DNA of 30,954 bases. Origin: a virus. Shown here in pieces: positions 15,909 through 30,400 of the stretch (position 1 is its first letter; each line of letters opens with the position of its first letter). The notes beneath the pieces were generated by a model. That model made no database searches. It saw only the letters and a program-made list of their open reading frames with translations, and was not told where the DNA came from. The stretch spans positions 1 to 30,954 of the IMG/VR virus record IMGVR_UViG_3300047550_004187; one strand, written 5' to 3'. The position numbers and the translations under genes are program-made.

Positions 15909-18863
15909 TCACTCAAAAAAATACTTTACAACGTTTGTAACATCAACATCAACCGATCTCATCTTAGAAAGAATGTCTGGATCAACTAAGTCTGGATGTA
16001 CCCACCAATCTTCAAATGTGTATTCATCATTTGGAGCAACATCTTTAACTGCAAGTTCATATCCAAGAGAACTTAAATACCTTCTGGACTTTAAACGATA
16101 TGAAGACGATGCATCTGCCGAATAATCATGTTCATATGTAATAATAGCAAATTTATATTTTTCAAATGGTATCGATGTTAATATTTCAAATGTAGTACTT
16201 GCAGGTTCACAATCTAACTGCAAATAATCATAGACTGTTCCTTTATTATTTTCATCAAGAAGTTTTTCATAATCAATTTTCGTTGCATCTTTACAAAGAA
16301 TTGTGTTTTTTCTTTGCTCTGAGAACATTTTACAAAGATCTTCACGAATTTCAATTGAAATACCATCCCAATCATACATCGTTTCAAGAAGAGCAGTATT
16401 ATTTTGATAGAATGGTTCTTGAGCACCGATTTCAAGGTAAAGTCCATTCTTTTTGCCATTGAGCATAGCAAGAATAAACAAATCTTGATATGCCTGAGAA
16501 TAGTTTTTTTCTATTTTTTCAGACCCAGGGAACTTAAATTTCAAAGAATCAAATTTATTTTTATTATACTTTATTACTTCTTCAGGTATGTGACCACTAC
16601 CAAGTCTCATTAAATTATCTTGAATAGATTGAAAATGAATTTGATCAACTTCATAATTTTCCTTAATTTCTCTCAGTAATTTGCGTGTTTCCTGTCCTTT
16701 ACCCCACCAATATCCAGAAATTGCTTTCTCATAAAGAAGACCATATTTACCAGGATATTCTATATTACTAATAGTAGGTTTAGAATCAAAATCACAAATA
16801 CTTAATCCAAGAGATGCATACTTATATGAGTCATTCCACTGAGACCTTCTCTCATGGAATCTTGCAAGAAGATAATATGCCTCTGGTCTCTTTGGGCATA
16901 AACATATAGCCTGCTGCAATAGAGAAACAGCAGTTCCATCACGAGTTCCTTGTTTATCATAACAGTGATGACTCTTTAAGAGTGCTTCATATGCAAAATC
17001 ATCATCAGTTGCTCTCTCTGCACATCTAAGGAAATAAGAAAGCGCAGGGGCAGTATGTCCCTGTTTTTCATACCAAAGTCCAAGATTAAAGTTGTGATGT
17101 GGATTTTCAGTATCCAAAGAATACTGGTATAGTAACTGCTCTAAATCAGTTTTATCAATAAAGTTAGATTCTTTTTTAGAACTATCTTCTATAGAAGTTG
17201 CAGATGTTTCTTCTCCAGAAATAACAAAAGATTTTTTAATAGGAATTGTCCCGATAAATTGATCAATAGTTTTCATATTTCCATTCTTCTTCCACCAATT
17301 ATAAACATATTCAGAAGCGTATATATGATTCGGTTTTTGTCCATTTTCCAATTCAAGATCATTTACATCTGTAGTTGGAATCTCAACGTTTTCAACAAAT
17401 AATGGGAAAGTATAAACTTTACCAACGTTTGTGAAAAGAATATTTTCACCAATTGGCATAACATCAACATCTTTCAGCTCAAGATGGAATGTATCACCAA
17501 TACAATAATTATCAATCAGTCTTTTAGCATAATCACGATTCATAATATATGCAGTTTCTGACCAGTCATCCCACTTACGATCTCTAAAATTTACATCGTC
17601 AAAATCACCACGAATAGTCATTAACTGAACACATTCACAATCATCAGGAAGTCTTTCAATAAATTCTTCCCAAGTAAAATTCCAATAATCTACAGTCTTA
17701 AGACTCAAATCATCTTCACAGAAAAATGCATACTCAGATTCTTCACTTTCATACCAAGTCTTGATAGCTTTCAAATGAGAAACAATACATCCCTGTGTTG
17801 GTCCAGTAAGTTGATAGACATACTTACCAGTAATTACATCATCAGATTCTGAAAATCTTTTTGACTTAATTGCTTTAGGTACAATATCATACTTAGCAAA
17901 TTGATCCTCTAATTGCTTTTGTCTATCTACACAATCTTCAAGTGTGACATAATAAACTGGAGGGAAATTTTCTAAATTATTCATTTCAGTTGCAATATAA
18001 TTTTGTGAGTTTATTTTTTTAATATTCCATTTTGTTTTTGGAGGAATATAATGATTTTCTGGATTAGAAAAATATTGTTTATTTTTAATAATATGATATT
18101 GTGCTATAGCATATTCCAATTGATACTTTACTTGTTCTCCGGAATAATACTGAGACAGATTATTCTCCATTTGTTGAATAGCATAAGCATCGTTTTCATC
18201 GTTTCCGACAAAATGTTCCGTTCTTTTAGAATCTGGATGGGGAATATGAATTAAATTATGATCATAGTTCAGTTTTGTATGATTTAATCCTAAGGATTCT
18301 AATCTAATTTGTAACTCCTCATCCTCAAATCCATAATATTCACCCAGATCTTCATTATATCCACCACACTTAAAGAAATTTTCTTTTGTAATGTGAAGTA
18401 ATCCAATCAGAGATTTGTAATATGGACTGTAAATATTGCAATATTCATAAATTTGATCAAAATTCATTCGACCAAAATCAACCATAGAAACACCATTTTC
18501 TAAGTACTCTGGACTCTGATAATTTGGTTTACCAGAAACAAAAGTATTTTCATCAATTGGATAAGCCTTAAAGAAATTATAATATGGATTAATAATATAG
18601 TCAATATCAAACTTCATAATTGAATCCCCCGTTGCAATACTTGCAGCTAGATTCAAAGGTTGTGGTTGATTAAAATATTTTTTATTTGGTACTGTAATAA
18701 CTTTTATTCTTGGATCTAATTCTGTAAGATGACTTAATGGTTCATCAGAACTCCAATCAACAATAATAATTTCTTTAACTTCATCAAAAAGCAACCAAGA
18801 TTGTAAAGAAATTGATAGTGGTTTATTACGATTTTTACATGCGGTAATTAATGATACGTTCAT
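15909..18863 (-). CDS. Four-part fusion: GT2 + GT25 + TPR + FkbM-like methyltransferase
   Basis: 984 residues. Domain 1 (about 1-230) is a GT-A family 2 glycosyltransferase: SLITACKNRNKPLSISLQSW, a DxD-type site in KFDIDYI, and YYGFEDEELQIRL. Domain 2 (about 300-500) is GT25-like (LPS/procollagen galactosyltransferase family): PVYYVTLEDCVDRQKQLEDQ, TQGCIVSHLKAI and FFCEDDLSL, where CEDD is the metal site. Domain 3 (about 575-745) is a TPR array (NPHHNFNLGLWYEKQGHTAP, PEAYYLLARFHERRSQWNDS). Domain 4 (about 780-975) resembles FkbM methyltransferases, with YLEIGAQEP as the SAM loop and YDYLQLDCE. It probably builds and caps a glycan on a protein or surface polymer. No frameshift is seen, so the fusion looks genuine. 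It is the last gene of the glycan block. Confidence 0.88.
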   Translation of the reverse strand: MNVSLITACKNRNKPLSISLQSWLLFDEVKEIIIVDWSSDEPLSHLTELDPRIKVITVPNKKYFNQPQPLNLAASIATGDSIMKFDIDYIINPYYNFFKAYPIDENTFVSGKPNYQSPEYLENGVSMVDFGRMNFDQIYEYCNIYSPYYKSLIGLLHITKENFFKCGGYNEDLGEYYGFEDEELQIRLESLGLNHTKLNYDHNLIHIPHPDSKRTEHFVGNDENDAYAIQQMENNLSQYYSGEQVKYQLEYAIAQYHIIKNKQYFSNPENHYIPPKTKWNIKKINSQNYIATEMNNLENFPPVYYVTLEDCVDRQKQLEDQFAKYDIVPKAIKSKRFSESDDVITGKYVYQLTGPTQGCIVSHLKAIKTWYESEESEYAFFCEDDLSLKTVDYWNFTWEEFIERLPDDCECVQLMTIRGDFDDVNFRDRKWDDWSETAYIMNRDYAKRLIDNYCIGDTFHLELKDVDVMPIGENILFTNVGKVYTFPLFVENVEIPTTDVNDLELENGQKPNHIYASEYVYNWWKKNGNMKTIDQFIGTIPIKKSFVISGEETSATSIEDSSKKESNFIDKTDLEQLLYQYSLDTENPHHNFNLGLWYEKQGHTAPALSYFLRCAERATDDDFAYEALLKSHHCYDKQGTRDGTAVSLLQQAICLCPKRPEAYYLLARFHERRSQWNDSYKYASLGLSICDFDSKPTISNIEYPGKYGLLYEKAISGYWWGKGQETRKLLREIKENYEVDQIHFQSIQDNLMRLGSGHIPEEVIKYNKNKFDSLKFKFPGSEKIEKNYSQAYQDLFILAMLNGKKNGLYLEIGAQEPFYQNNTALLETMYDWDGISIEIREDLCKMFSEQRKNTILCKDATKIDYEKLLDENNKGTVYDYLQLDCEPASTTFEILTSIPFEKYKFAIITYEHDYSADASSSYRLKSRRYLSSLGYELAVKDVAPNDEYTFEDWWVHPDLVDPDILSKMRSVDVDVTNVVKYFFE

Positions 18864-18872
18864 ATTTTTACA

Positions 18873-20240
18873 TCAAGAATCTTTGTGCTGGATAATTACA
18901 TTGGACCCTTCATACCCCCAAATTATCTCATAATTTATTTCTTGGATGAGAGAATTTAATTCATCTAAGGTTCTTCCACATTGCTGCAAATTTTGATCAT
19001 AGTATTCTAAAAGTATTTTTGGCTTATATTTTTTAATAGTTTCAATACCTCCGATTATTATATTATATTCAGAACCTTCTGTATCAATTTTTATTAAATC
19101 TATTTTCGTATCTAAAAATAGATTGTCAATTGTATTTGTTTTCACCAAATAATCATAATAATCGTCTCCAGTAAATCTAGTTGGATTTTCACCAAGGGTA
19201 TTAAGTCCTCTATGAGAATGACATATTTTTAAGTTAGATTCTCCAACCCTATCAGATAAAGCATCTTCACTAACGATTACATTTTTTATTTGATTTAATT
19301 CTAAGTTTTGTCTAAGTAAAGTACAATTCCAAGAATCTGGTTCAAAACTATACCAAAGTGTTTTTGGATAAAACTTTGATAATAATGTAAAGCATCCACT
19401 CTGAGCCCCTATATCCAAGATAGTATAATCATCTTGAATATGTTTCATAAACTCATTAATTACATCAAGTTCACATATGGTTTCATTAAGATTATCATCC
19501 AACCAAGTTTTTGAATTTTGCTGTTGGGTTTCTTTTGAAACTAAAATTTTAAATTTATCCGTATATGAATATAAAGAATATTGTGTATTTTTATATTTAC
19601 AATCTTCTACTTTATTATTTCTAGATGGTGCAGTAATCGACTCATACTTTTCAAAGTTGTTTTGAAACAAAAACTGATCTAGTTCATCTCCAGTATTGCC
19701 ACCTTCATAATCATTAGATTCATCATATTCTGCGTATATATCATAAACTCGATTTAAATGATTATTCAAACTCTTTAAAACATTTAAATCATTTCCTTGA
19801 GTATCTGTTTTAAGAAGATTGATATAATCATATTGAATATTATCAAGTATATAACGTAATGGTATTACATCTACATTATATACCTCATCAATACTATTAA
19901 CAAATCTTCCTTTTGGTTTTCTTAAAGAAGATGTTCCGGAGTCATATCCAGTTGCTGGACCTCCAAGACCATAAAAAACTTTTTGAGTTGGACTTTGAAC
20001 ATTATCAACAGCCGCCTCAATTAGATAACACCTACCTTTAAAAGGAGAATTGTTTAGATATTCTTCACAAGATCTAAAATTATTTGGATGAGGTTCAATA
20101 CCAATAACAAAAACATCATTATCAGAACTCAACCAATTAATTGAGTTTGGCATGTTTGTTGATAAACCGATATCAAATCTTAGTTTAAGACCTGTTGATA
20201 ACTTTTGATTAATAAAATCAAAATCAATTTGTTTTCTCAT
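18873..20240 (-). CDS. Double FkbM-type methyltransferase
   Basis: 455 residues with two copies of the FkbM fold. Copy 1 (about 1-215): LRFDIGLST, VIGIEPHPNNF and INLLKTDTQGNDLNVLKSL. Copy 2 (about 245-450): YTILDIGAQSGCFTLLSKF, YSFEPDSWNCTLLRQNLELN and IDLIKIDTEGSEYNIIIGGI. Both have the acidic residue after the SAM loop and the K-x-D-T-[EQ]-G motif, but copy 1 has DIGLST in place of the usual D-[IV]-G-[AG]-x-x-G, so its SAM loop may be impaired. FkbM enzymes O-methylate sugars or macrolides. It sits between the fusion glycosyltransferase and the GT11 enzyme and probably methylates the same glycan. Confidence 0.88.
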   Translation of the reverse strand: MRKQIDFDFINQKLSTGLKLRFDIGLSTNMPNSINWLSSDNDVFVIGIEPHPNNFRSCEEYLNNSPFKGRCYLIEAAVDNVQSPTQKVFYGLGGPATGYDSGTSSLRKPKGRFVNSIDEVYNVDVIPLRYILDNIQYDYINLLKTDTQGNDLNVLKSLNNHLNRVYDIYAEYDESNDYEGGNTGDELDQFLFQNNFEKYESITAPSRNNKVEDCKYKNTQYSLYSYTDKFKILVSKETQQQNSKTWLDDNLNETICELDVINEFMKHIQDDYTILDIGAQSGCFTLLSKFYPKTLWYSFEPDSWNCTLLRQNLELNQIKNVIVSEDALSDRVGESNLKICHSHRGLNTLGENPTRFTGDDYYDYLVKTNTIDNLFLDTKIDLIKIDTEGSEYNIIIGGIETIKKYKPKILLEYYDQNLQQCGRTLDELNSLIQEINYEIIWGYEGSNVIIQHKDS

Positions 20241-20280
20241 TTATTAAAATCCCAAAAAATATATGTAAAAAAATTTAATT

Positions 20281-21162
20281 TTATATATTATATATTACTC
20301 GATTCCAATCCTCTGGAAATAAATCTTTTAAATTAATCATAACTTCAAAATCTTCATGAAGATTATTCATATGAGATTCACCGAACCAAGGATCTGGATA
20401 ACAGACCACAGGACTCTCTGCCAACCATGCACCCCACCAACCAAAAGAACTATTACCAATAATATGTTTTTGGCACATAGACATTAAACAAAGATCATAA
20501 AGATTTGAATTATTTGAAACTAGATTAGTATCTTTATTGTAATTTACAGGATCATAAGACTTGGAAATAAGAATATTGTTCGCTGAAAATATTTTTTGAT
20601 TCTTGCACCATTCATAATCATCAGAAAATACTATTGCATAATCGTAGTTACCAACAAGATCAAAACATTTCTGAAAGTATTCTTCGTTAGGTATTGGAAA
20701 TTCATGAGGTCTTCCTATGTTATCACCTCTCCTCACTTGTATTGCTAAAAGCGTTTTGTTTTTAAATTGAGATATAAACTCAAGACATTTGGATTGAATA
20801 TGAGGTAAAAAAGTGAAATTCTCTTTAATTAAATTTTTACAGTGTTCAAAGTATTTTTCACTTTGAAAATAACCAAGATAGTCAGTATTATCAGATGCAT
20901 TATTAAAAATATTTTCATCAAAATGAAACTGTCTTTCTTTTATAAAATTTTTCCTATCGATGCGAATAATATTTTCTTTCTTTAAAGTCTTTAATTCAAA
21001 TGCTTCAAACAACTGATGATGTATCCAGGCATTTTTAAAAGTACTTGGAGGAATTGCAATTTCATATCCATACTTAGAGTGCAAACCAACTAAAAAAGCA
21101 TATTGAAACATTTGATTTCCAAGTCTTCCAAATTCTCCAAGAGTATTAAAAGAAATAGTCAT
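20281..21162 (-). CDS. GT11 alpha-1,2-fucosyltransferase-like glycosyltransferase
   Basis: 293 residues, full length for GT11. Motif I is FGRLGNQMFQYAF (11-23); the donor-binding motif is AIQVRRGDNIG (a variant of HxRRxD, with Gln-Val for the usual His region); and motif III is NSSFGWWGAWLAES. The family transfers fucose from GDP-fucose to galactose-type acceptors. No GDP-fucose synthesis genes lie in this window, so the sugar donor would come from the host or another part of the genome. It begins directly after the previous gene's stop. In phages such enzymes are thought to alter host surface glycans or decorate virions. Confidence 0.9.
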   Translation of the reverse strand: MTISFNTLGEFGRLGNQMFQYAFLVGLHSKYGYEIAIPPSTFKNAWIHHQLFEAFELKTLKKENIIRIDRKNFIKERQFHFDENIFNNASDNTDYLGYFQSEKYFEHCKNLIKENFTFLPHIQSKCLEFISQFKNKTLLAIQVRRGDNIGRPHEFPIPNEEYFQKCFDLVGNYDYAIVFSDDYEWCKNQKIFSANNILISKSYDPVNYNKDTNLVSNNSNLYDLCLMSMCQKHIIGNSSFGWWGAWLAESPVVCYPDPWFGESHMNNLHEDFEVMINLKDLFPEDWNRVIYNI

Positions 21163-22059
21163 CTATACAATCCTCAATCTTTCAGTATTAAATGAATAAT
21201 CTGAATCCAATTTAAGAGTATTTGGATAGGTTGAATGCCAAAAGTTATCTCTCACTAAAGTTGGATTATAATTTAATAAATGAGAGACCCAACTATAAGA
21301 ACTATTTGACATAATCAATAAGTCGGCATGAGACATATGGTAAATATCACTTACAGGATTTTCATTTAAATGCAAAATTATTTCAAATTTATTTTCACTC
21401 AGGTTAATAATATTTAAAAAGTTATCTTTACTTCCTTGTGAGTAAATGTGCAAATGAGTTTTTTGATTATAACACACCTTCTTCAAATTGTTAAGTAAAT
21501 TAAGGTATATTGTATCTTGTTTATTATCAAAATATTCTCTACATTCTATAAAAGAAATATCTTCAGGATTTATAGACCGAATATGAAAACATATATTTAA
21601 TGCTTTCTTTGAGAAGTAATTTTTATTTAAAATAAAATTATGTTTTAAGTATTTCAAATATTCTTTTTCATAAATCTCACTAATAATAGATTGACCATAT
21701 CTTAAAACTTCATCTGGTTCCAAATAAATTAAGACTTCCTTTTCTTTATTATTTGATAGATAGGAAAAAAAATCATCGTCGATTTTTGGAAAAGAAATTT
21801 TTTCACTTATAAATTTATTTGTAGAGAAATTAAAAAAATTAGTGAATAAGTTATCCCATTCCTCCTGAGAATAATCTGAATAAGATGAATGTCCTATATT
21901 TTTAAATCCAGAGTTATAAAATTCTACTTTGAGTTTTTTACAAATTGCATAAAGAAATAATTGAGATTGAAGTATTGCTCCTATACCTTCATTTTTTCCA
22001 CATTTTATAGCACTAGAACTTCTAGATCCATCAGAGTTTGTTTCTAGATATATTGACAT
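21163..22059 (-). CDS. Putative GT-B glycosyltransferase (fucosyltransferase-like)
   Basis: 298 residues from ATG 22059, which forms a TAATG overlap with the preceding stop; an in-frame ATG at 22077 would reach into that gene. It starts MSIYLETNSDGSRSS and has GIGAILQSQLFLYAICKKL, which parallels the N-terminal G-N-x-[FM]-x-Q-x-[FY]-x-x-A motif of GT11-type enzymes. The C-terminal half has NICFHIRSINPEDISFIECR, IYHMSHADLLIMSNSSYSWV and NPTLVRDNFWHSTYP, equivalent to the donor-site and SSFS-type motifs. It is diverged, so the sugar is uncertain. It belongs to the same co-translated block as GT11. Confidence 0.72.
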   Translation of the reverse strand: MSIYLETNSDGSRSSSAIKCGKNEGIGAILQSQLFLYAICKKLKVEFYNSGFKNIGHSSYSDYSQEEWDNLFTNFFNFSTNKFISEKISFPKIDDDFFSYLSNNKEKEVLIYLEPDEVLRYGQSIISEIYEKEYLKYLKHNFILNKNYFSKKALNICFHIRSINPEDISFIECREYFDNKQDTIYLNLLNNLKKVCYNQKTHLHIYSQGSKDNFLNIINLSENKFEIILHLNENPVSDIYHMSHADLLIMSNSSYSWVSHLLNYNPTLVRDNFWHSTYPNTLKLDSDYSFNTERLRIV

Positions 22060-22967
22060 TATGCACCATTTGTACATTCAAAACAATCAAATATTTTAAA
22101 TGAAATATTTGGATTTATCGAAAGAGCACCTAAAAGCATATTACTTGCACCAGACATAATATAGGATGTTCTACTTGCCAAAACAACGTCAATAATACAT
22201 TCTTCAATTTCTCTTCTATATTCGGATTCACTCATTATTTTTAAACCATCATTACCCTTCCAATCAGTAGTTGTTCTTCTTCTATCTGGAGTAATGCATT
22301 TATCACCGTAAGTATTCATAAAGAGATCAAAAACTTCTTGAACTTGTGTCAGTAAAAATATATTATCATAATCATCTATTTTACCATTAACTTCTTTAAC
22401 AATCTCATTTAAATAATCATCTTGACATCCAATATAATGAGCAGAATATCTTATCATTAAAGTAAGAACCTTTTTATCTTGGATAATTTCAAATTGTCTA
22501 TCAATTTCATCCTCCATATATTTTGATATTTTTAATTTTTTCCACATATTGTGGTATAAATTTCTAATATCAGATAGTGTTTGTGTGTCAAAATATTGTT
22601 TAATATTCCAACCAGCACCATCATGTCTCGTTAAGATATCAGGATAAGTCTTGATTAAATTTTTAATAGTATAAACATGATCTTCAGAATAAAGATCAAA
22701 ACCTAGATTTAGATCCTTATTATTAAAACAAAATATATCATTTGCATGATTATACCGTTCTAATAAAGCAACTGGCATTTGATCATATTGTATATTTCGA
22801 TAAAAATCACCATATTTACAATAACCATTTCCCTCAAAATCAGTCTTATTTGGCCAGTGAAGATATAATGATATGTCATTATCAGAAATATCTTCAACCA
22901 ACATCCAAGAAAGAAATCTTAAGATAGTACTAAATGTACCTGCACTACTGCCAATTATCAAGTTCAT
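22059..22967 (-). CDS. Putative glycosyltransferase, O-/N-fucosyltransferase-like fold
   Basis: 302 residues from ATG 22967, 2 nt after the previous stop; an upstream TTG is not needed. The start MNLIIGSSAGTFSTILRFLS recalls the G-x-G loop of GT-B enzymes. Later segments are LTLMIRYSAHYIGCQDDYLN (donor-site H/R region), NIFLLTQVQEVFDLFMNTYG (equivalent to the ifvaTD strand), and IIDVVLASRTSYIMSGASNM (equivalent to the D-x-x-x-L-x-x-C-d...S-N motif of fucosyltransferases). The order of these elements fits the GT23/NodZ-type family, though the identity is clearly low. It is coupled to the next gene by TAATG. Confidence 0.65.
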   Translation of the reverse strand: MNLIIGSSAGTFSTILRFLSWMLVEDISDNDISLYLHWPNKTDFEGNGYCKYGDFYRNIQYDQMPVALLERYNHANDIFCFNNKDLNLGFDLYSEDHVYTIKNLIKTYPDILTRHDGAGWNIKQYFDTQTLSDIRNLYHNMWKKLKISKYMEDEIDRQFEIIQDKKVLTLMIRYSAHYIGCQDDYLNEIVKEVNGKIDDYDNIFLLTQVQEVFDLFMNTYGDKCITPDRRRTTTDWKGNDGLKIMSESEYRREIEECIIDVVLASRTSYIMSGASNMLLGALSINPNISFKIFDCFECTNGA

Positions 22968-22969
22968 GA

Positions 22970-23962
22970 TCAATCAAAAATATAATCATTCACAAAATCT
23001 TTTGAAACTCTGAGTAGATAGGCAGCATTATCTTGGAAACCAAACGTAATTAGAAAGTCATTGCCATACTCACACATACCAACAGCAAATTCAATTTCAC
23101 CATTAATAAATGCAAATTGCTTGGATACTTTTACAATATTCCAATTCTTATCCCAAACAATAAAGCGGTGCCTATAGGTTCCATCTTTTCTATTCTGCTC
23201 ACTCTGGAATAGATAAGTTTCATGATTTAGACAGAATCTATAGTCATTACCCAAAGGAATAACTTGAGATCCTCCACGAAGATCAATACAACCAATATCT
23301 CTCCAATTAGTTAAAACTACTTGAGTTGTTTGACCAGTTTCAATATCATACTTAACAACTTCAGTACCATTTGTCCATTTCACAAAATGAAATGGCATAT
23401 CGATAATAGGCATCCAATTCTTTTCACAATATGAATTGTTTGCACCAGGAGCTGGAATACGATATTGCTTAAGTTCTTTTACACCATTATCCGTAATTTC
23501 AATCTCAGAGAGTTCCATACGACCTGTTCCAATCGTATCTAAGTCTCTACGAACTCCACAAATATAAAGTTTCCCATCCCAACGAACGATACGAGCATCC
23601 TCTAGACCAACAAAATCCCAGAGTTCTTTGTCAGGAAAATCTGAAGTATCAATACGAGTATATTTTTTAATTCTCATATTTTCATCCATTTCGCACATAT
23701 AATTCCAAGTGCGAAGACGCCAATCGTTTTCTGGATGAATATAAACTAGAGGACCCCAATGGTGCTCAAACTTTTTCTTTTCAGAATGATATAAAGTATA
23801 GTTAATATTTCTCAGATTAACTAATATCTTATCCCCATCAATATAAATTGATGGGTTTGTGAGTGCTGGTCCCTTTAAATCTGATGCAGGAATAATTAAT
23901 GGATGAATGCTTCCCCCATTTTGCAAGGCAAGCTTAACAAAATTCATTTCATCTACTGCCAT
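22970..23962 (-). CDS. Five-bladed beta-propeller protein, GH130-like
   Basis: 330 residues from ATG 23962; a TTG 15 nt upstream is less likely. The repeating pattern of an aromatic or acidic strand, turn and strand fits a five-bladed propeller. Key segments are TNPSIYIDGDKILVNLRNIN (25-60), WDFVGLEDARIVRWDGKLYI with the E-D-x-R pattern of the GH130 catalytic face, CEKNWMPIIDMPFHFVKWT, and FAFINGEIEFAVGMCEYG. GH130 enzymes phosphorolyse or hydrolyse beta-mannosides. A binding-only role is also possible, since the proton donor cannot be confirmed by eye. It leads the glycan block, preceded by a TCTAAATA element (23983-23990). Confidence 0.7.
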   Translation of the reverse strand: MAVDEMNFVKLALQNGGSIHPLIIPASDLKGPALTNPSIYIDGDKILVNLRNINYTLYHSEKKKFEHHWGPLVYIHPENDWRLRTWNYMCEMDENMRIKKYTRIDTSDFPDKELWDFVGLEDARIVRWDGKLYICGVRRDLDTIGTGRMELSEIEITDNGVKELKQYRIPAPGANNSYCEKNWMPIIDMPFHFVKWTNGTEVVKYDIETGQTTQVVLTNWRDIGCIDLRGGSQVIPLGNDYRFCLNHETYLFQSEQNRKDGTYRHRFIVWDKNWNIVKVSKQFAFINGEIEFAVGMCEYGNDFLITFGFQDNAAYLLRVSKDFVNDYIFD

Positions 23963-23982
23963 AAAATGCAAATACAAAAAAT

Positions 23983-23990
23983 TATTTAGA
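23983..23990 (-). promoter_or_regulatory. Late-type promoter for the glycan-modification block
   Basis: On the minus strand this is TCTAAATA, 20-28 nt upstream of the beta-propeller gene and identical to the elements at 5304 and 6186. The genes down to 15909 are separated by 40 nt or less, so this could drive the whole block as one late operon. Confidence 0.5.
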
Positions 23991-24010
23991 TCTTATTATA
24001 GCACAGATTT

Positions 24011-24610
24011 TCAAATTTTAGTAAGAATCAAATTCATATCTGATATATGAATGGAAGTGTCATCTGCGGTATTTTTAACATGAACTTCAACATAATCATT
24101 TTGATTCAATTGAACTACATCAGTTAATGTTACATGATTAATAATTCCATTTGAAGCTTCGTGCGTTACTGTTGCAGAAGTTCTGATTCCCACATTACTA
24201 TCGTAAAAAGAAAACTGTGCATCATAAGTTCCACCAACTCCTTCAAAATAAATTCCAGCAGTAACAAGATAAAGATCTGTAGTCGTGCTAGTACAAGTTA
24301 GACGATTATTGGTATGAGTAAATCCAACATTAAAATCACCAACAGTAGTAGTTCCAGCAACTTTTGTCCAGACGTTATCCGATGCTGCGGGAAATGTTGT
24401 ATTGGTAGCATTACCAACAACATATAAATGTCCGACGACTGGAGATGAACCTAGAGTAACTCCACCAGGAGTAGATCCATCAGATAATTTTAATTCTGGA
24501 TCAAACGGATCATAAAAAATTTCTCCCTGATTTCCAATAAATTCTGTTGGATCAGTGGCTCCCAACTTCTCAACATAAATTCTATACGTTGTATTTGTTG
24601 ATAGTGACAT
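24011..24610 (-). CDS. Tail-fibre-like protein with tropism-determinant-type N-terminus
   Basis: 199 residues. The N-terminal IGNQGEIFYDPFDPELKLSD then GSTPGG matches the short beta-hairpin motif (G-E-[IL]-x-[YW]-D...L-x-[IL]-x-D-G-x-T-P-G-G) common to phage fibre and tropism proteins. The rest is a Thr/Ser/Asn-rich beta domain with YLVTAGIYFEGVGGTYDAQF and NDYVEVHVKNTADDTSIHI, which looks like a C1q/TNF-type jelly-roll head. It probably forms a trimeric fibre tip. A late-type element (24633-24640) precedes it, and it follows the small chaperone-like gene. Confidence 0.82.
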   Translation of the reverse strand: MSLSTNTTYRIYVEKLGATDPTEFIGNQGEIFYDPFDPELKLSDGSTPGGVTLGSSPVVGHLYVVGNATNTTFPAASDNVWTKVAGTTTVGDFNVGFTHTNNRLTCTSTTTDLYLVTAGIYFEGVGGTYDAQFSFYDSNVGIRTSATVTHEASNGIINHVTLTDVVQLNQNDYVEVHVKNTADDTSIHISDMNLILTKI

Positions 24611-24632
24611 CTTAATTCATTTTACTTTATAT

Positions 24633-24640
24633 TATTTATT
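24633..24640 (-). promoter_or_regulatory. Late-type promoter for the 199-residue fibre gene
   Basis: On the minus strand this is AATAAATA, 23-30 nt before the fibre ATG and overlapping the first stop base of the preceding chaperone-like gene. Confidence 0.45.
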
Positions 24641-24840
24641 TAAGGTTCTTCTGGCCAAATAATATTATCTGGGTCTGATTGAAGAGTAATGTCTCTCAAA
24701 GATTGTCTATAATCCATCCATGCTGTTCTTTGAGTATTAGATAATTGACAATCTACCAAAGCAATCCAATCTGATCTAGAAAGAAAGACATTTCTAAGTT
24801 TTCTTACATTATCCCATTTTAATTGAAGTTCTTCGTCCAT
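24640..24840 (-). CDS. Small tail-fibre assembly chaperone-like protein
   Basis: 66 residues made up almost entirely of one recognisable unit: VRKLRNVFLSRSDWIALVDC, then QLSNTQRTAWMDYRQSLRDI and PDNIIWPEEP. This is the pattern of the phage tail assembly chaperone family (PF16778: R-[ND]-x-x-L-x-x-S-D-W ... W-x-x-Y-R-Q-x-L-R-D). Such proteins help fibre folding or attachment. It sits between two fibre genes, the expected place. It has a larger relative at 26140-26703. Confidence 0.82.
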   Translation of the reverse strand: MDEELQLKWDNVRKLRNVFLSRSDWIALVDCQLSNTQRTAWMDYRQSLRDITLQSDPDNIIWPEEP

Positions 24841-24851
24841 ATTTTTAAAAA

Positions 24852-25496
24852 TTAAATTACTGTATATTCAAAATAACTACCACCATAAACAGTTGTGGGC
24901 CCAGCGTTTGATGTATTCTGAGCCCACTGAAATGCAAAATTACCAGTCGCTGAAGGAATTACTACTGCATCCAATTCTATAATAACCAGACCAGAAGCAT
25001 TATCAGTTAATGCAATATCAACAGTATCTAAAGATGTAGTGAGACCAAGTGCCAAAAATGGGTTTGCGCCAGTACCATTAGTATTAGTAACTCTTACATA
25101 TTTTAAAACAGAAGACGTTGTTGGTCCAGAAAATCTATACTTTAAGTCAGCAGCAGCAGTTGTTGTATAAAATATTTTACCACGAATTGCATATTCAACT
25201 CCAGAAGTCATCGAAAAAAGTAATTCACTATCATTTGCTGTAGTCACATTATTATTTCGACTTTCATCGGTTGTCTTTTTAACTAAAGTCCAACTTGATG
25301 CTGGTCCAATTGTTCCCTGAAGACCCTGAGTACCTTGATTACTTAATCCCTGAGTTCCTTGAGTTGATTGAACACCCTGAAGTCCTTGAGTTCCTTGACG
25401 ACTTTGAGTTCCCTGAAGTCCCTGAATACCTTGAGTTCCTTGGATGCCCTGAGCACCAATAAAATTACCACCAATAATAGAACTTAAGAATGCCAC
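24852..25496 (-). CDS. Collagen-like tail-fibre protein
   Basis: 214 residues. Residues about 14-66 are collagen-like Gly-x-Gln triplets (GAQGIQGTQGIQGLQGTQ and on), with Gly replaced by Ser twice (SRQ, STQ) and one 5-residue phase slip (GLSNQ), ending GTIGPASS. The rest is a beta-rich head: WTLVKKTTDESRNNNVTTAN, VEYAIRGKIFYTTTAAADLK, NFAFQWAQNTSNAGP and a YFEYTVI end, the type of trimeric head found on cyanophage fibres. The triplet region should form a stiff trimeric stalk. The Y position is nearly always Gln, not Pro. A perfect TATAAATA lies 23-30 nt upstream. Confidence 0.88.
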   Translation of the reverse strand: MAFLSSIIGGNFIGAQGIQGTQGIQGLQGTQSRQGTQGLQGVQSTQGTQGLSNQGTQGLQGTIGPASSWTLVKKTTDESRNNNVTTANDSELLFSMTSGVEYAIRGKIFYTTTAAADLKYRFSGPTTSSVLKYVRVTNTNGTGANPFLALGLTTSLDTVDIALTDNASGLVIIELDAVVIPSATGNFAFQWAQNTSNAGPTTVYGGSYFEYTVI

Positions 25497-25518
25497 TCGT
25501 CTTTAATGCACTTGTATC

Positions 25519-25526
25519 TATTTATA
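25519..25526 (-). promoter_or_regulatory. Consensus late promoter for the collagen-like fibre
   Basis: On the minus strand this is TATAAATA, a perfect match to the T4 late consensus, 23-30 nt upstream of the collagen-like gene. It forms a back-to-back pair with the plus-strand TCTAAATA at 25533-25540. Confidence 0.7.
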
Positions 25527-25532
25527 AAGTGT

Positions 25533-25540
25533 TCTAAATA
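25533..25540 (+). promoter_or_regulatory. Late-type promoter for the plus-strand oxygenase
   Basis: TCTAAATA on the plus strand, 28 nt before the ATG of the 193-residue oxygenase. The gene is the only plus-strand gene in 8-31 kb, so it needs its own promoter. Confidence 0.55.
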
Positions 25541-25567
25541 ATCTAAAATAAATTGATTATAGAATTT

Positions 25568-26149
25568 ATGAGTGATTTTTTGAAGAAAGGTTGGCATTAT
25601 CTTCCAGAAATTATTTCTCAAGAAGAAGCAATACAAATAAAATATCAAAATCTTTGTGGTGCAGTAAAAGATCTTGGTAATTTAAATGGTACTTGGGATC
25701 CTGAAAGAGGAAGAGTTTTATTTTGTTATGCACCACCATCCTGCACATATGTAATGAAAAGAATGCAACCAATACTTGAGGAATTAGTCGGTGAAGAACT
25801 TATTCCAACCTATTGGTTTTCTACAACTTATCATAAAGGTGGTTGGATGAACTGTCATACTGATCGTCCATCTTGTGAAGTATCAGTGACGATGAATATT
25901 TGTGGTGATGCAAAATGGCCTATCAAACTCAAAGATCTAACAGATAAAAGAAGAGAAGTTATAACACCAGTTGGTCACGGAGTTGCATATCTTGGGACAA
26001 TCGTTCCTCATTGGAGAAGTCCTTTAAGAACTCACGATAATGATCGTTTTATGCAATTGTTTCTACACTTTGTAAGAAAAAACGGTCAGTATGCAGACTA
26101 TGCATATGACCGTAATGATAAATGTTATACTCTTTTAACTCAAGGTTGA
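25568..26149 (+). CDS. 2-oxoglutarate/Fe(II) oxygenase (aspartyl/prolyl-hydroxylase-like)
   Basis: 193 residues from ATG 25568 (an earlier TTG would add 5 residues). The iron-binding set is CHTDRPSCEVSV (His97, Asp99) and the distal His148 in IVPHWRSPL, with Arg150 as a possible 2-oxoglutarate anchor. Strands around them (STTYHKGGWMN, VSVTMNICGDAKWPI, FMQLFLHFVR) fit the double-stranded beta-helix fold. Such enzymes hydroxylate protein side chains or small molecules. It stands alone on the plus strand, facing away from the collagen-like gene and overlapping the tail of the next fibre-assembly gene. The substrate is unknown. Confidence 0.8.
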   Translation: MSDFLKKGWHYLPEIISQEEAIQIKYQNLCGAVKDLGNLNGTWDPERGRVLFCYAPPSCTYVMKRMQPILEELVGEELIPTYWFSTTYHKGGWMNCHTDRPSCEVSVTMNICGDAKWPIKLKDLTDKRREVITPVGHGVAYLGTIVPHWRSPLRTHDNDRFMQLFLHFVRKNGQYADYAYDRNDKCYTLLTQG

Positions 26150-26703
26150 GATTGTTCTAGTGGGGGAAGAGGATCATTAATCATATGAATTCCTCTCAAT
26201 TCTCCTACAAAATTAGCATAAACTGATTCATTAACAGATACGTCTGCTGGGGCAGCAGGAATTTCTGTTGGGAATGGTTGAACTGTAGGAAGATCTCTAA
26301 GTTCTTGCCTCCAATCGGTGAATTCCTGTGATAATGCCACACCAGTTTCTGTTGAACGAATTACCACCCAATCAGTTTCATCTAAAAGTTGATTGCGATA
26401 TTTTCTTACACTACTTTGTCTTTTTATAGATTGTCTTGAATCATAAGCATCAATTTCATCATCCCATTCTTGTTGAGTCAGAATTGAAAGACCTGGATTT
26501 ACTTCAGTAATGACTGTTTCGTCAGGTACATTTGAAAGGAAAAATTCAATTCCGTTTTCATCAATTAGTGAATGAACTCCCACAATACCTTCAGCAGTAA
26601 ATCCAACTACACCAAACATTGGTTGTGCAAATTGTGCTGGTGTTGTTGCAAATACTCCTGGTCTGTCTCTATCAACCCAATAATGTTTAATAAGTTGTGT
26701 CAT
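26140..26703 (-). CDS. Fibre-associated protein with tail-assembly-chaperone domain
   Basis: 187 residues. The N-terminal part MTQLIKHYWVDRDRPGVFAT then PAQFAQPMFGVVGFTAEGIV is a beta-rich stretch of unknown type. Residues about 108-150 carry the chaperone unit RKYRNQLLDETDWVVIRSTE then SQEFTDWRQELRDLPT, the same family as the 66-residue protein at 24640-24840. A Pro-rich C-terminus follows (PFPTEIPAAPADVS, INDPLPPLEQSQP). It overlaps the convergent oxygenase gene by 10 nt at its end. It is preceded by CATAAATA (26729-26736). It probably helps assemble the giant repeat fibre or its neighbours. Confidence 0.78.
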   Translation of the reverse strand: MTQLIKHYWVDRDRPGVFATTPAQFAQPMFGVVGFTAEGIVGVHSLIDENGIEFFLSNVPDETVITEVNPGLSILTQQEWDDEIDAYDSRQSIKRQSSVRKYRNQLLDETDWVVIRSTETGVALSQEFTDWRQELRDLPTVQPFPTEIPAAPADVSVNESVYANFVGELRGIHMINDPLPPLEQSQP

Positions 26704-26728
26704 TATAGAACTTCTGAAATGTTATTTT

Positions 26729-26736
26729 TATTTATG
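26729..26736 (-). promoter_or_regulatory. Late-type promoter for the 187-residue fibre-assembly gene
   Basis: CATAAATA on the minus strand, 26-33 nt upstream of the ATG, 7 of 8 matches to TATAAATA. It overlaps the stop of the prolyl-hydroxylase-like gene. Confidence 0.5.
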
Positions 26737-27391
26737 GAACCTTGATTCCATACTTCTCTTCAATTTCTTTATCTTGTTCTTCTTTTGTTTTAAAACCCTG
26801 AACTCTCATCCAGGTTACAAGAGTATATCTTTGACCTGAAAGTACTGGTTCTACACAATGTTTGAACCATCTAGAAGAAGGAAAACAAACAAGAAGTCCT
26901 GGTTCTGGTTTAATAGTGACTCTTAAATCTGGAAATGTAAAATATCCGCCTTCAAAATCATTATTCAGAAAAAGAACCGTAGAAAGATCACGATCTACAC
27001 TCTTTTTCCACATCTGAGTTCCATCGGGATTTGTCCAAAGTGCTTCTGCATCATAGTGAGGTTTATAGTGCCCTCCTTTTTCATAGTAAAGAAGTTGTGG
27101 CATTTCACTGTCTTTGATCTTAAATCCATAAAAAGGATTGATAACATGATCAATAATATTTGCCATCAGATCGTGAATCTGAGGAAGTATTGGTGTTACA
27201 TCGGCACACTTCACATCTCTGGATGACTTATCTACCTTATGTTCTTGTTGCTTTGTAAGATTTGTTTTATCGGGATCGAAGACTCCCATCTGTTCCATTT
27301 CTGCACTATTTGCATAATCAATGAGATATTTACAATTCTCTTTAGTGACTACTTTGGGTTGAATTAAAATATTAGAAAGTAAATCATTCAT
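26732..27391 (-). CDS. Prolyl 4-hydroxylase-like 2-oxoglutarate/Fe(II) oxygenase
   Basis: 219 residues. The complete site is visible: His112 and Asp114 in GGHYKPHYDAE, distal His178 in RWFKHCVEPV and Arg188 in SGQRYTLVTWM, which anchors 2-oxoglutarate. LLYYEKGGHYKPHYD and DLSTVLFLNNDFEGGYFTFP are typical of the P4H family, common in cyanophages and near fibre genes. It hydroxylates proline or related residues in proteins; the target here is not shown. It lies directly after the giant repeat gene (transcription order) and is preceded by ACTAAATA (27414-27421). Confidence 0.92.
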   Translation of the reverse strand: MNDLLSNILIQPKVVTKENCKYLIDYANSAEMEQMGVFDPDKTNLTKQQEHKVDKSSRDVKCADVTPILPQIHDLMANIIDHVINPFYGFKIKDSEMPQLLYYEKGGHYKPHYDAEALWTNPDGTQMWKKSVDRDLSTVLFLNNDFEGGYFTFPDLRVTIKPEPGLLVCFPSSRWFKHCVEPVLSGQRYTLVTWMRVQGFKTKEEQDKEIEEKYGIKVP

Positions 27392-27413
27392 ATCAATAAT
27401 GATATAGTTGTTT

Positions 27414-27421
27414 TATTTAGT
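27414..27421 (-). promoter_or_regulatory. Late-type promoter for the prolyl-hydroxylase-like gene
   Basis: On the minus strand this is ACTAAATA, 23-30 nt upstream of the start codon. It overlaps the stop codon of the repeat protein gene. Confidence 0.45.
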
Positions 27422-30400
27422 TTGCGTTTGAGACTGCTGTTAAAAAAGTTCTTGCTTGAGATAACTTAGGTGTTGGTGTTGTTACTGTTTCAGTGGAGAA
27501 ATCTAGACGATCAATGGTGGAAAGTTGAGGAGGAGCACTACCACCACCAAAATAACCATAAGAACTACTTGAGACTGCTGCTAAACCTTGTTTTATTCTG
27601 GATAACTGGGGTCCTGGTACTGTTGCGGTTTCTGTGGAAAAATCTAGACGGTCAATGGTGCAAACATTACTAGTTAAAGGATCTAGACCGCCAGCAAAAT
27701 AACCATAAGAACTACTTGAGATTGCTGTTAAAAAATTTCTTGCTGAAGATAACTGTGCTCCTGGTACTGTGACAGTTTCTGTAGAAAAATCTAGACGGTC
27801 AATGGTACAAAGAGCACTAGAAGGGGAACTATTACCACCACCAAAGTAACCATAAGAACTACTTGATGTTGCTGATAAAGCAAGTTTTGCTGAAGATAAC
27901 TTAGATGTTGGTTCTGTGACGGTTTCTGTGAAGAAGTCTAGACGGTCAATAGTGCAAACACTAGTAAGAGGAGGAAAATAACCACCTCCAAAGTAACCAT
28001 AAGAACTACTTGAGATTGCTGTTAAAAAATTTTTTGCTTGAGATAACTTAGGTGTTGGAACTGTTACGGTTTCTGTAGAGAAATCTAAACGGTCAATCGT
28101 AGAAACATAAGCAGGAAGAGTATTAATACCACCACCATAAAAACCATAAAAACTACTTGAGGTTGCTGCCATTCTTTGTTTTCCTTGAGATAACTTAGGT
28201 GTTGGTACTGATACGGTTTCCGTAGAGAAATCTAGACGGTTTATGGTGCAAACGGCACTGGGAAGAATAAAACCTCCAGCAAAATACCCGGCAGTCGCAG
28301 TACCAACTCTTTGTACCTGTGTTCCTCCAGAAAGTGCTGTTGATCTAGATCTTGCTGAAGATAACTTAGGTGCTGGTGTTGAAAGAGTTTCTGTAGAAAA
28401 ATCTAGACGCTCAATAAGAGAAACAACAGCAGGTCTAGCGCCACCAGCAATATAACCATAATGATTACTTTGAGTGCCAACTGCTGTCTCCCTATAATCT
28501 GGTAATCTAGGGGCAATTACTGAAGTTAATTCGTTTGAGAAATCTAAGCGATCAATGGTACAAACATAAGTATTAAAACCAATAGGAGGAGAAAAACCTC
28601 CGGCAAAATAAGCATAAGATTTGCTTGAAAATGCTGATAAACCACGTCTTTTCTTAGATAAAAAATATGATGGTACTGAGGCAGTTTCTGTGGAAAACTC
28701 TAAACGTTCAAAGTTATCATAATATAACACTCTACTAACAGCAAAATCTCCACCTCCAAAATACCCATAAGAGTTAGTTGATACTGATGCACAACCCAAT
28801 CTCGCATACTTAAAATCAGTATTTGTTGTTGTTACCAATTCAGTAGAAAAATCCAAACGGTCTAAATTACATCTATATACATCCCCAGTATCTGAACTTC
28901 CAACAAATGTATATCCCCCTCCAAAATAACCATAAGAATTTCCAGAGACTCCAGATCCCCACCAACCTCTTTTAGTCAATTTAGAATTAATAATTGCAAC
29001 ACCATCTGTAGAAAAATCTAAACGATTTATAGTATTGAGTCTCCAAAAGTCAGTTGAAGATGCATCATTAGCATCATAACCACCAGCAACGTATCCATAT
29101 AATTGACTATAAACTCCTGAAGCACCAGTCACACCACTAGCATCTCCGGAAGTCTGTATTCTACCAGTTTTTATCTTAGAATCTGGAGTAGTTACAGTCT
29201 CTGTAGAGAAATCTATACGATCTATAGTACTAATTTGATCACCAGTAGCAATATATCCAAAAGTTTTAAATTCTGACCAATTTAAACTATTTGAATTTTT
29301 ATTTAAAAAAATCTTATTACTATAAATTGCTGATGCTAAAGAACTTCTTGCTTGAGATAACTTGGGCGATGGTGTTGATATACCATATGAATCAGTAATA
29401 AAATCTAATCTATCTATTGTAGAAAACACTCCAGCACCAGGTCTATATCCACCACCAAAATAACCAAAGGCAGATGGTGAATTTGCTACTGCCGCAAAAT
29501 TAGCTCTTGCTTGAGATAATCTAGATAGGAATGCATCTCCAGCTGATACGGTTTCTGTTGAAAAGTCTAGACGATCAATGGTGCAAATAGCAGTAGGAGC
29601 AAAACCTCCAGCAAAGTAACCATAAGAACTACTTGAGACTGCTGCTAAACCTGAAGTTTGTCTCCTTAATCTATTCGGTGCAGTAGCTGCTGGAACTGAT
29701 ACACTTTCTGTAGAGAAATCTAGACGGTCAATTGTACAAACAAAAGTAGGACCAGGAATAGTACCACCAGCAAAGTAACCATAAGAACTATTTGAGACTG
29801 CTGCTAAACCACTTCTTGCTTGAGATAACTGATTTGGTGCTGGTGCTGGTGGTGGTCCTACGGTTTCTGTGGAGAAATCTAGACGGTCAATGGTGCAAAG
29901 AGGACCAGGATCACCACCACTAAAGTAACCATAAAGACTACTTGAGACTGCTGCTAAACCACTTCTTGCTTGAGATAACTTAGGTGTTGGTACTGTTACG
30001 GTTTCTGTGGAGAAATCTAGACGGTCTATGGTGGAAACAACAGTACCAGTAGTTCCACCACCAAAGTAACCATAAAGACTACTTGAAACTGCTGCTAAAC
30101 TACCTCTTGCTTGAGATAACTTAGGTGTTGGGGTTGTGACGATTTCTGTAGAAAAATCTAGACGGTCTATGGTGGAAACGGGAGTAGGAGTTTGACCACC
30201 ACCAAAGTAACCATAAAAAATATAAGGAATATCATATAAAACATTATCAACTTCCTCAAAGGTGGGAGTTGACCTGTAACTGACTGCTTCTAAACCAGTT
30301 CTTGCTTGAGATAACTTAGGTGTTGGTGTTGTGACTGTTTCTGTAAAGAAATCTAGACGGTCAATGGTGCAAACACGAGTACTAGGAGGAAAATAACCAC

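What the first reader, a model, noticed from the sequence alone, without database searches (positions are those of the whole stretch)
15909..27391. Possible phage collagen/fibre modification system: collagen-like fibre, two hydroxylases and a GT25 glycosyltransferase
Within 12 kb are a collagen-like Gly-x-Gln fibre, two 2-oxoglutarate/Fe(II) hydroxylases (one clearly P4H-like), a GT25 domain (the family that includes collagen hydroxylysine galactosyltransferases) and further sugar and methyl transferases. Together they could hydroxylate, glycosylate and methylate virion fibres. Against the simplest version: the collagen-like part has no Lys and almost no Pro (Y position is Gln), so the acceptors would more likely be Thr in that stalk, or Pro/Lys/Thr in the kelch-like VPTPKLS turns.
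Basis: inference. Interest (0 to 1): 0.78.

Follow-up and report, generated by a model that had tools for sequence, protein, structure and literature searches.

The report
Phage hydroxylases paired with fibre genes
A marine cyanobacterial virus carries two oxygen-using enzymes that are probably not there for its collagen-like fibre but travel with the gene of a neighbouring repeat-built surface protein, which suggests the virus chemically finishes its own host-grabbing parts.

Summary
The proposed collagen + P4H + GT25 system is not supported. The window's collagen-like stalk has no Lys and one Pro in its Gly-x-Gln part. Across 50 whole records, neither collagen nor GT25 is associated with the P4H. 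S-SKS1 has the P4H and kelch genes but no collagen and no GT25.

The P4H-like gene sits between the giant kelch-repeat gene and a tail-fibre-assembly chaperone, with the second hydroxylase next to them. This order is conserved: kelch lies directly upstream of 50 of 65 nonredundant P4H genes, and P4H is present in 33 of 34 kelch-anchored clusters. In the 50 records, kelch and close P4H occur in exactly the same 7. A more distant P4H+hydroxylase pair follows another, Gly/Pro-rich fibre type (17 of 26, anchor contigs removed).

Best reading: a two-oxygenase module that hydroxylates the fibre protein encoded beside it. The GT25 fusion, with a GH130/GT108-like partner identified here, is a separate glycan module. 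Hydroxylation itself is untested; a published S-SM1 virion proteome could be re-searched.

The parts
27417..30953 (-). Kelch-repeat protein, 1178 codons, open at the window edge; proposed substrate and adhesin
   Evidence: PF24681 Kelch 103 bits, cut-off 50; PHROG 19111; 22 repeats found by pattern, Pro at repeat position 11 in 17 of them
26732..27391 (-). P4H/PKHD-like 2OG-Fe(II) oxygenase, 25 bp from the kelch gene
   Evidence: PF13640 59.5 bits; H112/D114/H178/R188 conserved; kelch directly upstream in 50 of 65 nonredundant relatives
26140..26703 (-). Tail-fibre-assembly chaperone
   Evidence: PF16778 36.7 bits, cut-off 26.6; PHROG 4912 tail fiber assembly; directly downstream of the P4H in 43 of 65
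25553..26149 (+). Second oxygenase (OX), PHROG 2954, probably mislabelled ferrochelatase
   Evidence: phrog_2954 181 bits; invariant HxD...H and many other columns; OX in 31 of 34 kelch-anchored clusters
24852..25496 (-). Collagen-like (Gly-x-Gln) fibre; not linked to the hydroxylases
   Evidence: PF01391 26.1 bits, below its 27.2 cut-off; tail fibre PHROGs
24011..24610 (-). Small protein, probably a fibre/structural part
   Evidence: PHROG matches of unknown function; inference
22970..23977 (-). GH130/GT108-like five-bladed propeller, mannoside phosphorylase or mannosyltransferase fold
   Evidence: AlphaFold2 pLDDT 84; Foldseek best hits Leishmania MPT and mannobiose phosphorylases, best E 3e-10; PF04041 weakly in 13 of 45 members
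22059..22973 (-). Unknown 304-aa protein in the glycan island
   Evidence: no Pfam or PHROG hit
21163..22077 (-). Unknown 304-aa protein in the glycan island
   Evidence: no Pfam or PHROG hit
20281..21162 (-). GT11 (fucosyltransferase-family) glycosyltransferase
   Evidence: PF01531 77 bits; phrog_2644 E 7e-79
18873..20240 (-). FkbM methyltransferase
   Evidence: PF05050 107 bits
15909..18863 (-). 984-aa fusion: GT2/GT7C, GT25 (window ~17229-17978), TPR, and a C-terminal region similar to phage FkbM/TPR proteins
   Evidence: GT2, GT7C, TPR; GT25; fold; similarity of residues 573-971

Best explanation
The window holds two independent modules in the host-recognition region of a T4-like cyanophage. 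Module A (25553-30953) is kelch protein, P4H/PKHD-like oxygenase, fibre-assembly chaperone and, on the other strand, a second oxygenase. Shown: gene identities, conserved metal-binding residues, and conserved linkage to the kelch gene across many phages. Inferred: during fibre assembly the two oxygenases hydroxylate the kelch protein, most likely a repeat-turn proline (x-P-G or x-P-T at repeat position 11, many times per protein), to stiffen, stabilise or diversify a receptor-binding surface. In other marine phages a related oxygenase pair does the same for an unrelated Gly/Pro-rich fibre. Module B (15909-23977) is a GH130/GT108-like enzyme, GT11, FkbM and the GT2-GT25-TPR fusion. It makes or transfers a methylated glycan, more likely onto a host or virion surface glycan than onto collagen hydroxylysine. 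It is not coupled to module A.
For: Gene order: kelch directly upstream of 50 of 65 nonredundant P4H ORFs, chaperone directly downstream of 43. P4H in 33 of 34 kelch-anchored clusters, against 3 of 52 collagen-anchored and 8 of 59 GH130-anchored clusters. Whole records: kelch and close P4H in the same 7 of 50, Fisher p 1e-8. Active-site residues conserved. Kelch repeat Pro11 in 80% of 1329 distinct segments; Pro-Gly 1.7-1.8 times expectation in kelch ORFs. Second fibre type: scanning with the N-terminus of a Gly-Asn-Pro-Gly fibre, 22 of 32 nonredundant loci with room have a P4H within 2.5 kb downstream, 17 of 26 after removing the six anchor contigs. P4H directly followed by OX on the same strand in 110 of 186 nonredundant P4H ORFs. 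Cultured examples: P-RSM4 and S-SM1 and S-SKS1.
Against: No modification has been measured. Gly-rich fibres have Pro-Gly only as expected from composition (0.98), the same without P4H (1.01), and Pro-Gly density does not differ with and without P4H in the fibre-anchored set (p 0.19). One kelch variant lacks Pro11 yet has the P4H (L224, L161). Related genes lie among DNA replication or recombination genes in syn9 (P4H-like) and S-ShM2 (OX). Part of the kelch-P4H synteny may be shared ancestry of one phage lineage. Two of the seven records (G006, G018) look like one virus. The kelch protein has not been shown to be in the virion.
Confidence: 0.5

Rival explanations
1. The oxygenases act elsewhere (nucleic acid repair, 2-oxoglutarate balance, a host protein) and lie beside fibre genes only because this hypervariable region collects accessory genes.
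For: Cyanophages carry many 2OG oxygenases, read in print as affecting 2OG levels or DNA repair (PMC3037559, passages). In S-ShM2 the OX gene lies among replication genes and in syn9 the P4H-like gene lies between UvsY and UvsW.
Against: The order kelch-P4H-chaperone-OX is kept over P4H identities from about 50 to 100% while collagen and GT genes around it change. Loci not chosen by P4H: P4H follows 7 of 14 kelch and 3 of 20 Gly-rich ORFs, but 7 of 474 other ORFs and 1 of 83 collagen ORFs.
Confidence: 0.33
2. One reading: P4H hydroxylates, and GT25 then glycosylates, the collagen-like fibre, as in animal or mimivirus collagen.
For: The genes are within 12 kb; GT25 membership confirmed; COLGALT1 and mimivirus R655 are among the nearest folds.
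Against: No Lys and one Pro in the stalk; no association of P4H with collagen or GT25 over 50 records; S-SKS1 has P4H but neither; only 7 of 181 collagen-like ORFs in my loci have a P4H within 2.5 kb downstream, six of them a different Gly-Asn-Pro type.
Confidence: 0.04
3. For module B: the glycosyltransferases and GH130/GT108-like enzyme alter the host's surface polysaccharide to block co-infecting phages, not the virion.
For: Published reading for such genes in the host recognition cluster of pelagi- and cyanomyophages (PMC7029224, passages). By sequence profile the GT25 domain is closer to bacterial GT25 (E 5e-8) than to COLGALT1 (E 0.16). The GH130-like protein has a fold of mannoside enzymes and is followed by a TPR, GT2 or GT25 gene in 40 of 60 cases.
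Against: TPR-fused transferases beside fibre genes would also fit glycosylation of a virion protein; by fold, COLGALT1 and bacterial GT25 are about equally near. No acceptor is known.
Confidence: 0.5

Closest known systems
Viral prolyl 4-hydroxylase of Paramecium bursaria Chlorella virus 1 (recalled; seen only as a citation in PMC9301287)
   Same: A virus-coded P4H-superfamily 2OG oxygenase thought to act on viral repeat proteins
   Different: Arg instead of Lys at the 2OG site; nearest solved relatives PKHD/PiuC and P3H1; gene fixed beside a kelch protein and a fibre chaperone
PKHD-type hydroxylase (PiuC, Sbal_3634)
   Same: Best profile matches in the PDB, E 2e-11 to 9e-11; Arg at the 2OG position in the alignments shown
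   Different: Bacterial proteins outside fibre operons, in iron uptake contexts (recalled); match covers only the core residues ~100-197
Mimivirus collagen modification (lysyl hydroxylase/glucosyltransferase; recalled) and mimivirus R655
   Same: Virus-coded hydroxylase plus GT25-family fold; R655 is the top Foldseek hit
   Different: Here no lysine-bearing collagen and no association of P4H with GT25 or collagen
T4-like host recognition cluster of cyano- and pelagimyophages (PMC7029224, passages)
   Same: Hypervariable region with tail fibres and glycosyltransferases
   Different: The passages read do not tie oxygenases to fibre genes
GH130/GT108 mannoside phosphorylases and mannosyltransferases (Leishmania MPT)
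   Same: Fold of the 22970-23977 protein
   Different: Pfam does not call it; PF04041 is only weak, in 13 of 45 members

Membership tests
Collagen prolyl 4-hydroxylase (strict) | HxD...H iron triad | tested here: met
   H112, D114, H178 in all covered rows of 41
Collagen prolyl 4-hydroxylase (strict) | Lys binding the 2OG C5 carboxylate (recalled as typical) | tested here: not met
   Arg188 in every covered row; aligned to Lys of human P4HA2 (alignment)
Collagen prolyl 4-hydroxylase (strict) | Collagen x-Pro-Gly substrate in the same locus | tested here: not met
   window stalk has one Pro and no Y-position Pro in its Gly-x-Gln part
2OG-Fe(II) oxygenase superfamily (PF13640) | Profile score above gathering | tested here: met
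   59.5 bits, cut-off 27
2OG-Fe(II) oxygenase superfamily (second protein, 25553-26149) | Known profile match | tested here: inconclusive
   no Pfam family for it in A4, no convincing PDB match; HxD...H invariant
Glycosyltransferase family 25 | PF01755 above cut-off | tested here: met
   24.3 vs 24 bits for the isolated domain; 44 of 45 members match at E up to 1
Collagen galactosyltransferase (COLGALT) | Hydroxylysine collagen acceptor | tested here: not met
   no Lys in the stalk; 0.36% Y-Lys in GT25+ clusters, no difference from GT25-
Kelch beta-propeller | Kelch profile above cut-off | tested here: met
   PF24681 103.3 bits, cut-off 50
Phage tail assembly chaperone (PF16778) | Profile above cut-off | tested here: met
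   36.7 bits, cut-off 26.6
Collagen triple helix repeat (PF01391) | Profile above cut-off | tested here: not met
   26.1 bits, cut-off 27.2: collagen-like only
GH130/GT108 | Five-bladed propeller fold of the family | tested here: met
   Foldseek probability 1.00, TM 0.49-0.58 for the best hits
GH130/GT108 | Catalytic Asp and activity | not tested
   E126-D127 of a GLEDAR motif invariant; equivalence to the catalytic Asp is recalled only
Fibre-hydroxylating enzyme | Hydroxylated residues in the fibre | not testable with these tools
   needs virion mass spectrometry

The most novel reading that the evidence does not exclude
Marine T4-like phages carry a dedicated two-oxygenase fibre-finishing module (P4H/PKHD-like + OX) that has been coupled separately to at least two unrelated adhesin types, a kelch-propeller protein and a Gly-Asn-Pro-Gly fibre. 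It hydroxylates repeated prolines (and perhaps another residue by OX) before the fibre is attached, a virion modification that I know of in no tailed phage.
Probability: 0.35. Interest if true: 0.8.

Novelty: new variant of a known kind. Interest (0 to 1): 0.58.

Why it matters
[quoted passage not shown] The linkage found here names a specific candidate substrate for each enzyme, the fibre gene beside it. It is testable on cultured phages (S-SKS1, S-SM1, P-RSM4) and possibly on existing S-SM1 virion mass-spectrometry data. It also shows that nearby GT25 and collagen genes should not be read as one pathway.

Tried and rejected
Rejected: the collagen-P4H-GT25 pathway.

Pro-Gly as a P4H signature: Gly-rich fibres near P4H looked Pro-Gly rich, but composition explains it and Gly-rich fibres without P4H are alike; in the fibre-anchored set the density does not differ. 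A strong contrast in Y-position Pro between collagen-like ORFs with and without a P4H is biased, because most of those with a P4H came from P4H/OX-anchored scans; I did not rely on it.

Led nowhere: kelch relatives in bacterial genomes (60 pattern matches, none confirmed); PDB and Pfam for the OX family; PDB sequence search for the GH130-like protein (the fold search worked). A paper search for prolyl hydroxylase with phage, tail fiber and virion gave 0 papers; hydroxyproline with bacteriophage and tail fiber gave 3, none seen to report it (listing only).

The tallies double-counted some single-feature clusters; one search is the corrected count.
Full report
WHAT THE WINDOW IS. The first 12 kb match only Synechococcus, Prochlorococcus and marine-virus records (22 records; the 20 listed at 74-77% identity). 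S-SKS1 is the closest named, cultured phage. The window is a 30,954-base virus record. The stretch in question is the hypervariable host-recognition part of a T4-like cyanophage, where tail fibres, glycosyltransferases and other accessory genes are known to gather (PMC7029224, passages).

OBSERVATION. All listed genes are present at the given coordinates. The collagen-like stalk is real but interrupted and scores just below the Pfam cut-off. The GT25 domain is one part of a 984-aa fusion: GT2/GT7C at the N-terminus, GT25, TPR, then a C-terminal region similar to phage FkbM/TPR proteins. PF01755 is met narrowly (24.3 vs 24 bits for the isolated domain) and 44 of 45 members of the alignment match it at E up to 1. 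An AlphaFold2 model (pLDDT 90.5) has mimivirus R655, human COLGALT1 and a bacterial beta-1,4-galactosyltransferase as nearest folds. By sequence profile the bacterial enzyme is clearly closer (E 5e-8) than COLGALT1 (E 0.16).

THE P4H-LIKE PROTEIN. It is a 2OG-Fe(II) oxygenase with its catalytic residues intact. A profile of 29 sequences matches PKHD/PiuC first, then prolyl 3-hydroxylase 1, then bacterial P4H. The residue that aligns with the 2OG-binding Lys of human P4HA2 is Arg188 (alignment). So 'P4H superfamily' is right and 'collagen P4H' is not shown. The second oxygenase has no Pfam or PDB match of note, but H-x-D and a distal His are invariant in 42 sequences; the PHROGs label 'ferrochelatase' looks wrong.

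TEST OF THE COLLAGEN-P4H-GT25 IDEA. I searched 50 whole records: 24 reached through collagen-like fibres, 16 through the GH130-like protein, 8 through the GT fusion, plus S-SKS1 and S-SCSM2R. Results (tests): collagen 47 of 50, GT25 36 of 50, any P4H relative 22 of 50. Any-P4H vs GT25: 17 of 22 against 19 of 28, p 0.54. Any-P4H vs collagen: 21 of 22 against 26 of 28, p 1.0. S-SKS1 (208 kb, one record) has the P4H and kelch and no match for collagen or GT25. The anchors inflate the collagen and GT25 rates, so these two tests have little power; the S-SKS1 case and the residue counts weigh more. In clusters with a close P4H, collagen-like triplets have Pro at the Y position in 0.04% and Lys in 0.09% of 2247 triplets; in other clusters 0.36% and 0.46% of 16,019. 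There is almost nothing for a collagen-type hydroxylase or hydroxylysine transferase to act on.

WHAT THE P4H IS LINKED TO. In IMG/VR loci fetched with the P4H, with the kelch protein and with other anchors, the order kelch, P4H, chaperone, OX (antisense) recurs. Of 65 nonredundant P4H ORFs, 50 have kelch directly upstream (stop-to-stop frames, mostly within about 41 bp) and 43 have the chaperone directly downstream. By cluster: P4H in 33 of 34 kelch-anchored clusters; the exception is one cluster (L206/L212) whose fetched sequence ends inside a kelch gene. P4H occurs in 3 of 52 collagen-anchored, 2 of 12 GT-anchored and 8 of 59 GH130-anchored clusters. In kelch-anchored clusters, collagen is present in 11 of 34 and GT25 in 4 of 34. 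In the 50 records, kelch and close P4H (at least 200 bits) are in exactly the same 7 (p 1e-8), two of which look like one virus. In S-SKS1 the module is complete except that the P4H is annotated as two overlapping pieces.

POSSIBLE ACCEPTOR. The kelch repeat has a consensus proline at position 11 after the RLDF anchor: 80% of 1329 distinct segments from 48 clusters, with Gly at position 12 in half of all segments. In the window it is present in 17 of 22 repeats. Pro-Gly is 1.7-1.8 times its expectation in kelch ORFs. Against: kelch turns often carry proline (recalled), so conservation need not mean modification. One variant repeat lacks position-11 Pro in four clusters, two of which (L224, L161) still have the P4H; its consensus has Pro elsewhere in the turn.

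A SECOND FIBRE TYPE. A more distant P4H subfamily is followed directly by OX; overall 110 of 186 nonredundant P4H ORFs are. Outside kelch loci, the nearest upstream ORF of 250 aa or more is usually Gly-rich, median 27% Gly over 101 cases (36 of the 186 had no such ORF in reach). In loci chosen by collagen or GH130 anchors, a P4H follows 3 of 20 Gly-rich, 7 of 14 kelch, 1 of 83 collagen and 7 of 474 other ORFs (Gly-rich vs other+collagen p 0.005; ORFs near a contig end without P4H left out). A scan with the N-terminus of a Gly-Asn-Pro-Gly fibre gave 49 loci; of 32 nonredundant with room, 22 have a P4H within 2.5 kb downstream, and 17 of 26 without the six anchor contigs. Cultured P-RSM4 and S-SM1 show the arrangement, in S-SM1 without OX next in line. 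Against a Pro-Gly-specific link: Pro-Gly in Gly-rich fibres is what composition predicts (0.98), the same without P4H (1.01), and fibre-anchored loci with and without P4H do not differ (p 0.19). Also, S-ShM2 has OX among replication genes and syn9 has a P4H-like gene between UvsY and UvsW, so these families are not always tied to fibres.

THE GLYCAN MODULE. The 22970-23977 protein, unseen by Pfam, is predicted as a beta-propeller (pLDDT 84) whose nearest solved folds are Leishmania MPT enzymes and GH130 mannoside phosphorylases, five-bladed as I recall. Of 60 nonredundant relatives in the GH130-anchored loci, 40 are followed directly by a TPR, GT2 or GT25 gene, the median stop-to-stop gap being an overlap. 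GT25 is found in 37 of 59 and TPR in 55 of 59 GH130-anchored clusters. This is a module of its own and does not depend on P4H, kelch or collagen. The usual reading for such genes is host-surface modification against co-infection (PMC7029224, passages); virion glycosylation is not excluded.

VERDICT. The ingredients are real; the proposed recipe is not supported. The surviving and more interesting part is the fixed pairing of two oxygenases with fibre genes. I give 0.5 that they hydroxylate the neighbouring fibre protein. Related oxygenases are common in cyanophages (14 of 16 genomes, PMC3037559, passages), so presence alone is ordinary; the fixed gene order is what is unusual. My literature searches covered open-licence papers only, and I read passages, not whole papers; I found no report of this module, which is weak evidence of novelty.

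Noticed in passing
window 25553-26149 (+) and relatives: PHROGs families 2954 and 3531 are labelled ferrochelatase and the same label appears in RefSeq cyanophage records; invariant HxD...H residues indicate a 2OG oxygenase instead.
   Followed up: partly
window 22970-23977 (-): GH130/GT108-like propeller protein without a Pfam call, a conserved partner of phage TPR/GT2/GT25 genes; a neighbouring gene in S-SCSM2R is annotated 'MGP protein'.
   Followed up: partly
L001 (S-SKS1) 6226-6887: The P4H gene of S-SKS1 is annotated as two overlapping CDS in different frames.
   Followed up: no
L087 2-11602: An open frame of 3867 codons made largely of Gly-x-Gln triplets (1091 counted), a giant collagen-like protein, with a distant P4H 432 bp downstream.
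   Followed up: no
L383, L398, L400, L026, L441 and others: Gly-Asn-Pro-Gly repeat fibres with Pro at 8-33% of Y positions in most, often followed by a P4H and OX; a second collagen-like fibre class distinct from the Gly-x-Gln stalks.
   Followed up: partly
L206 and L212: Three kelch-repeat genes in a row within the fetched locus, the last cut by the end of the fetched sequence.
   Followed up: no
L204 3468-4289 and S-SKS1 203666-204496: In some phages a gene resembling a sulfotransferase lies near or just upstream of a kelch gene (annotated as such in S-SKS1), another possible surface-modifying enzyme; the L204 call is by eye plus phrog_27463 of unknown function.
   Followed up: no
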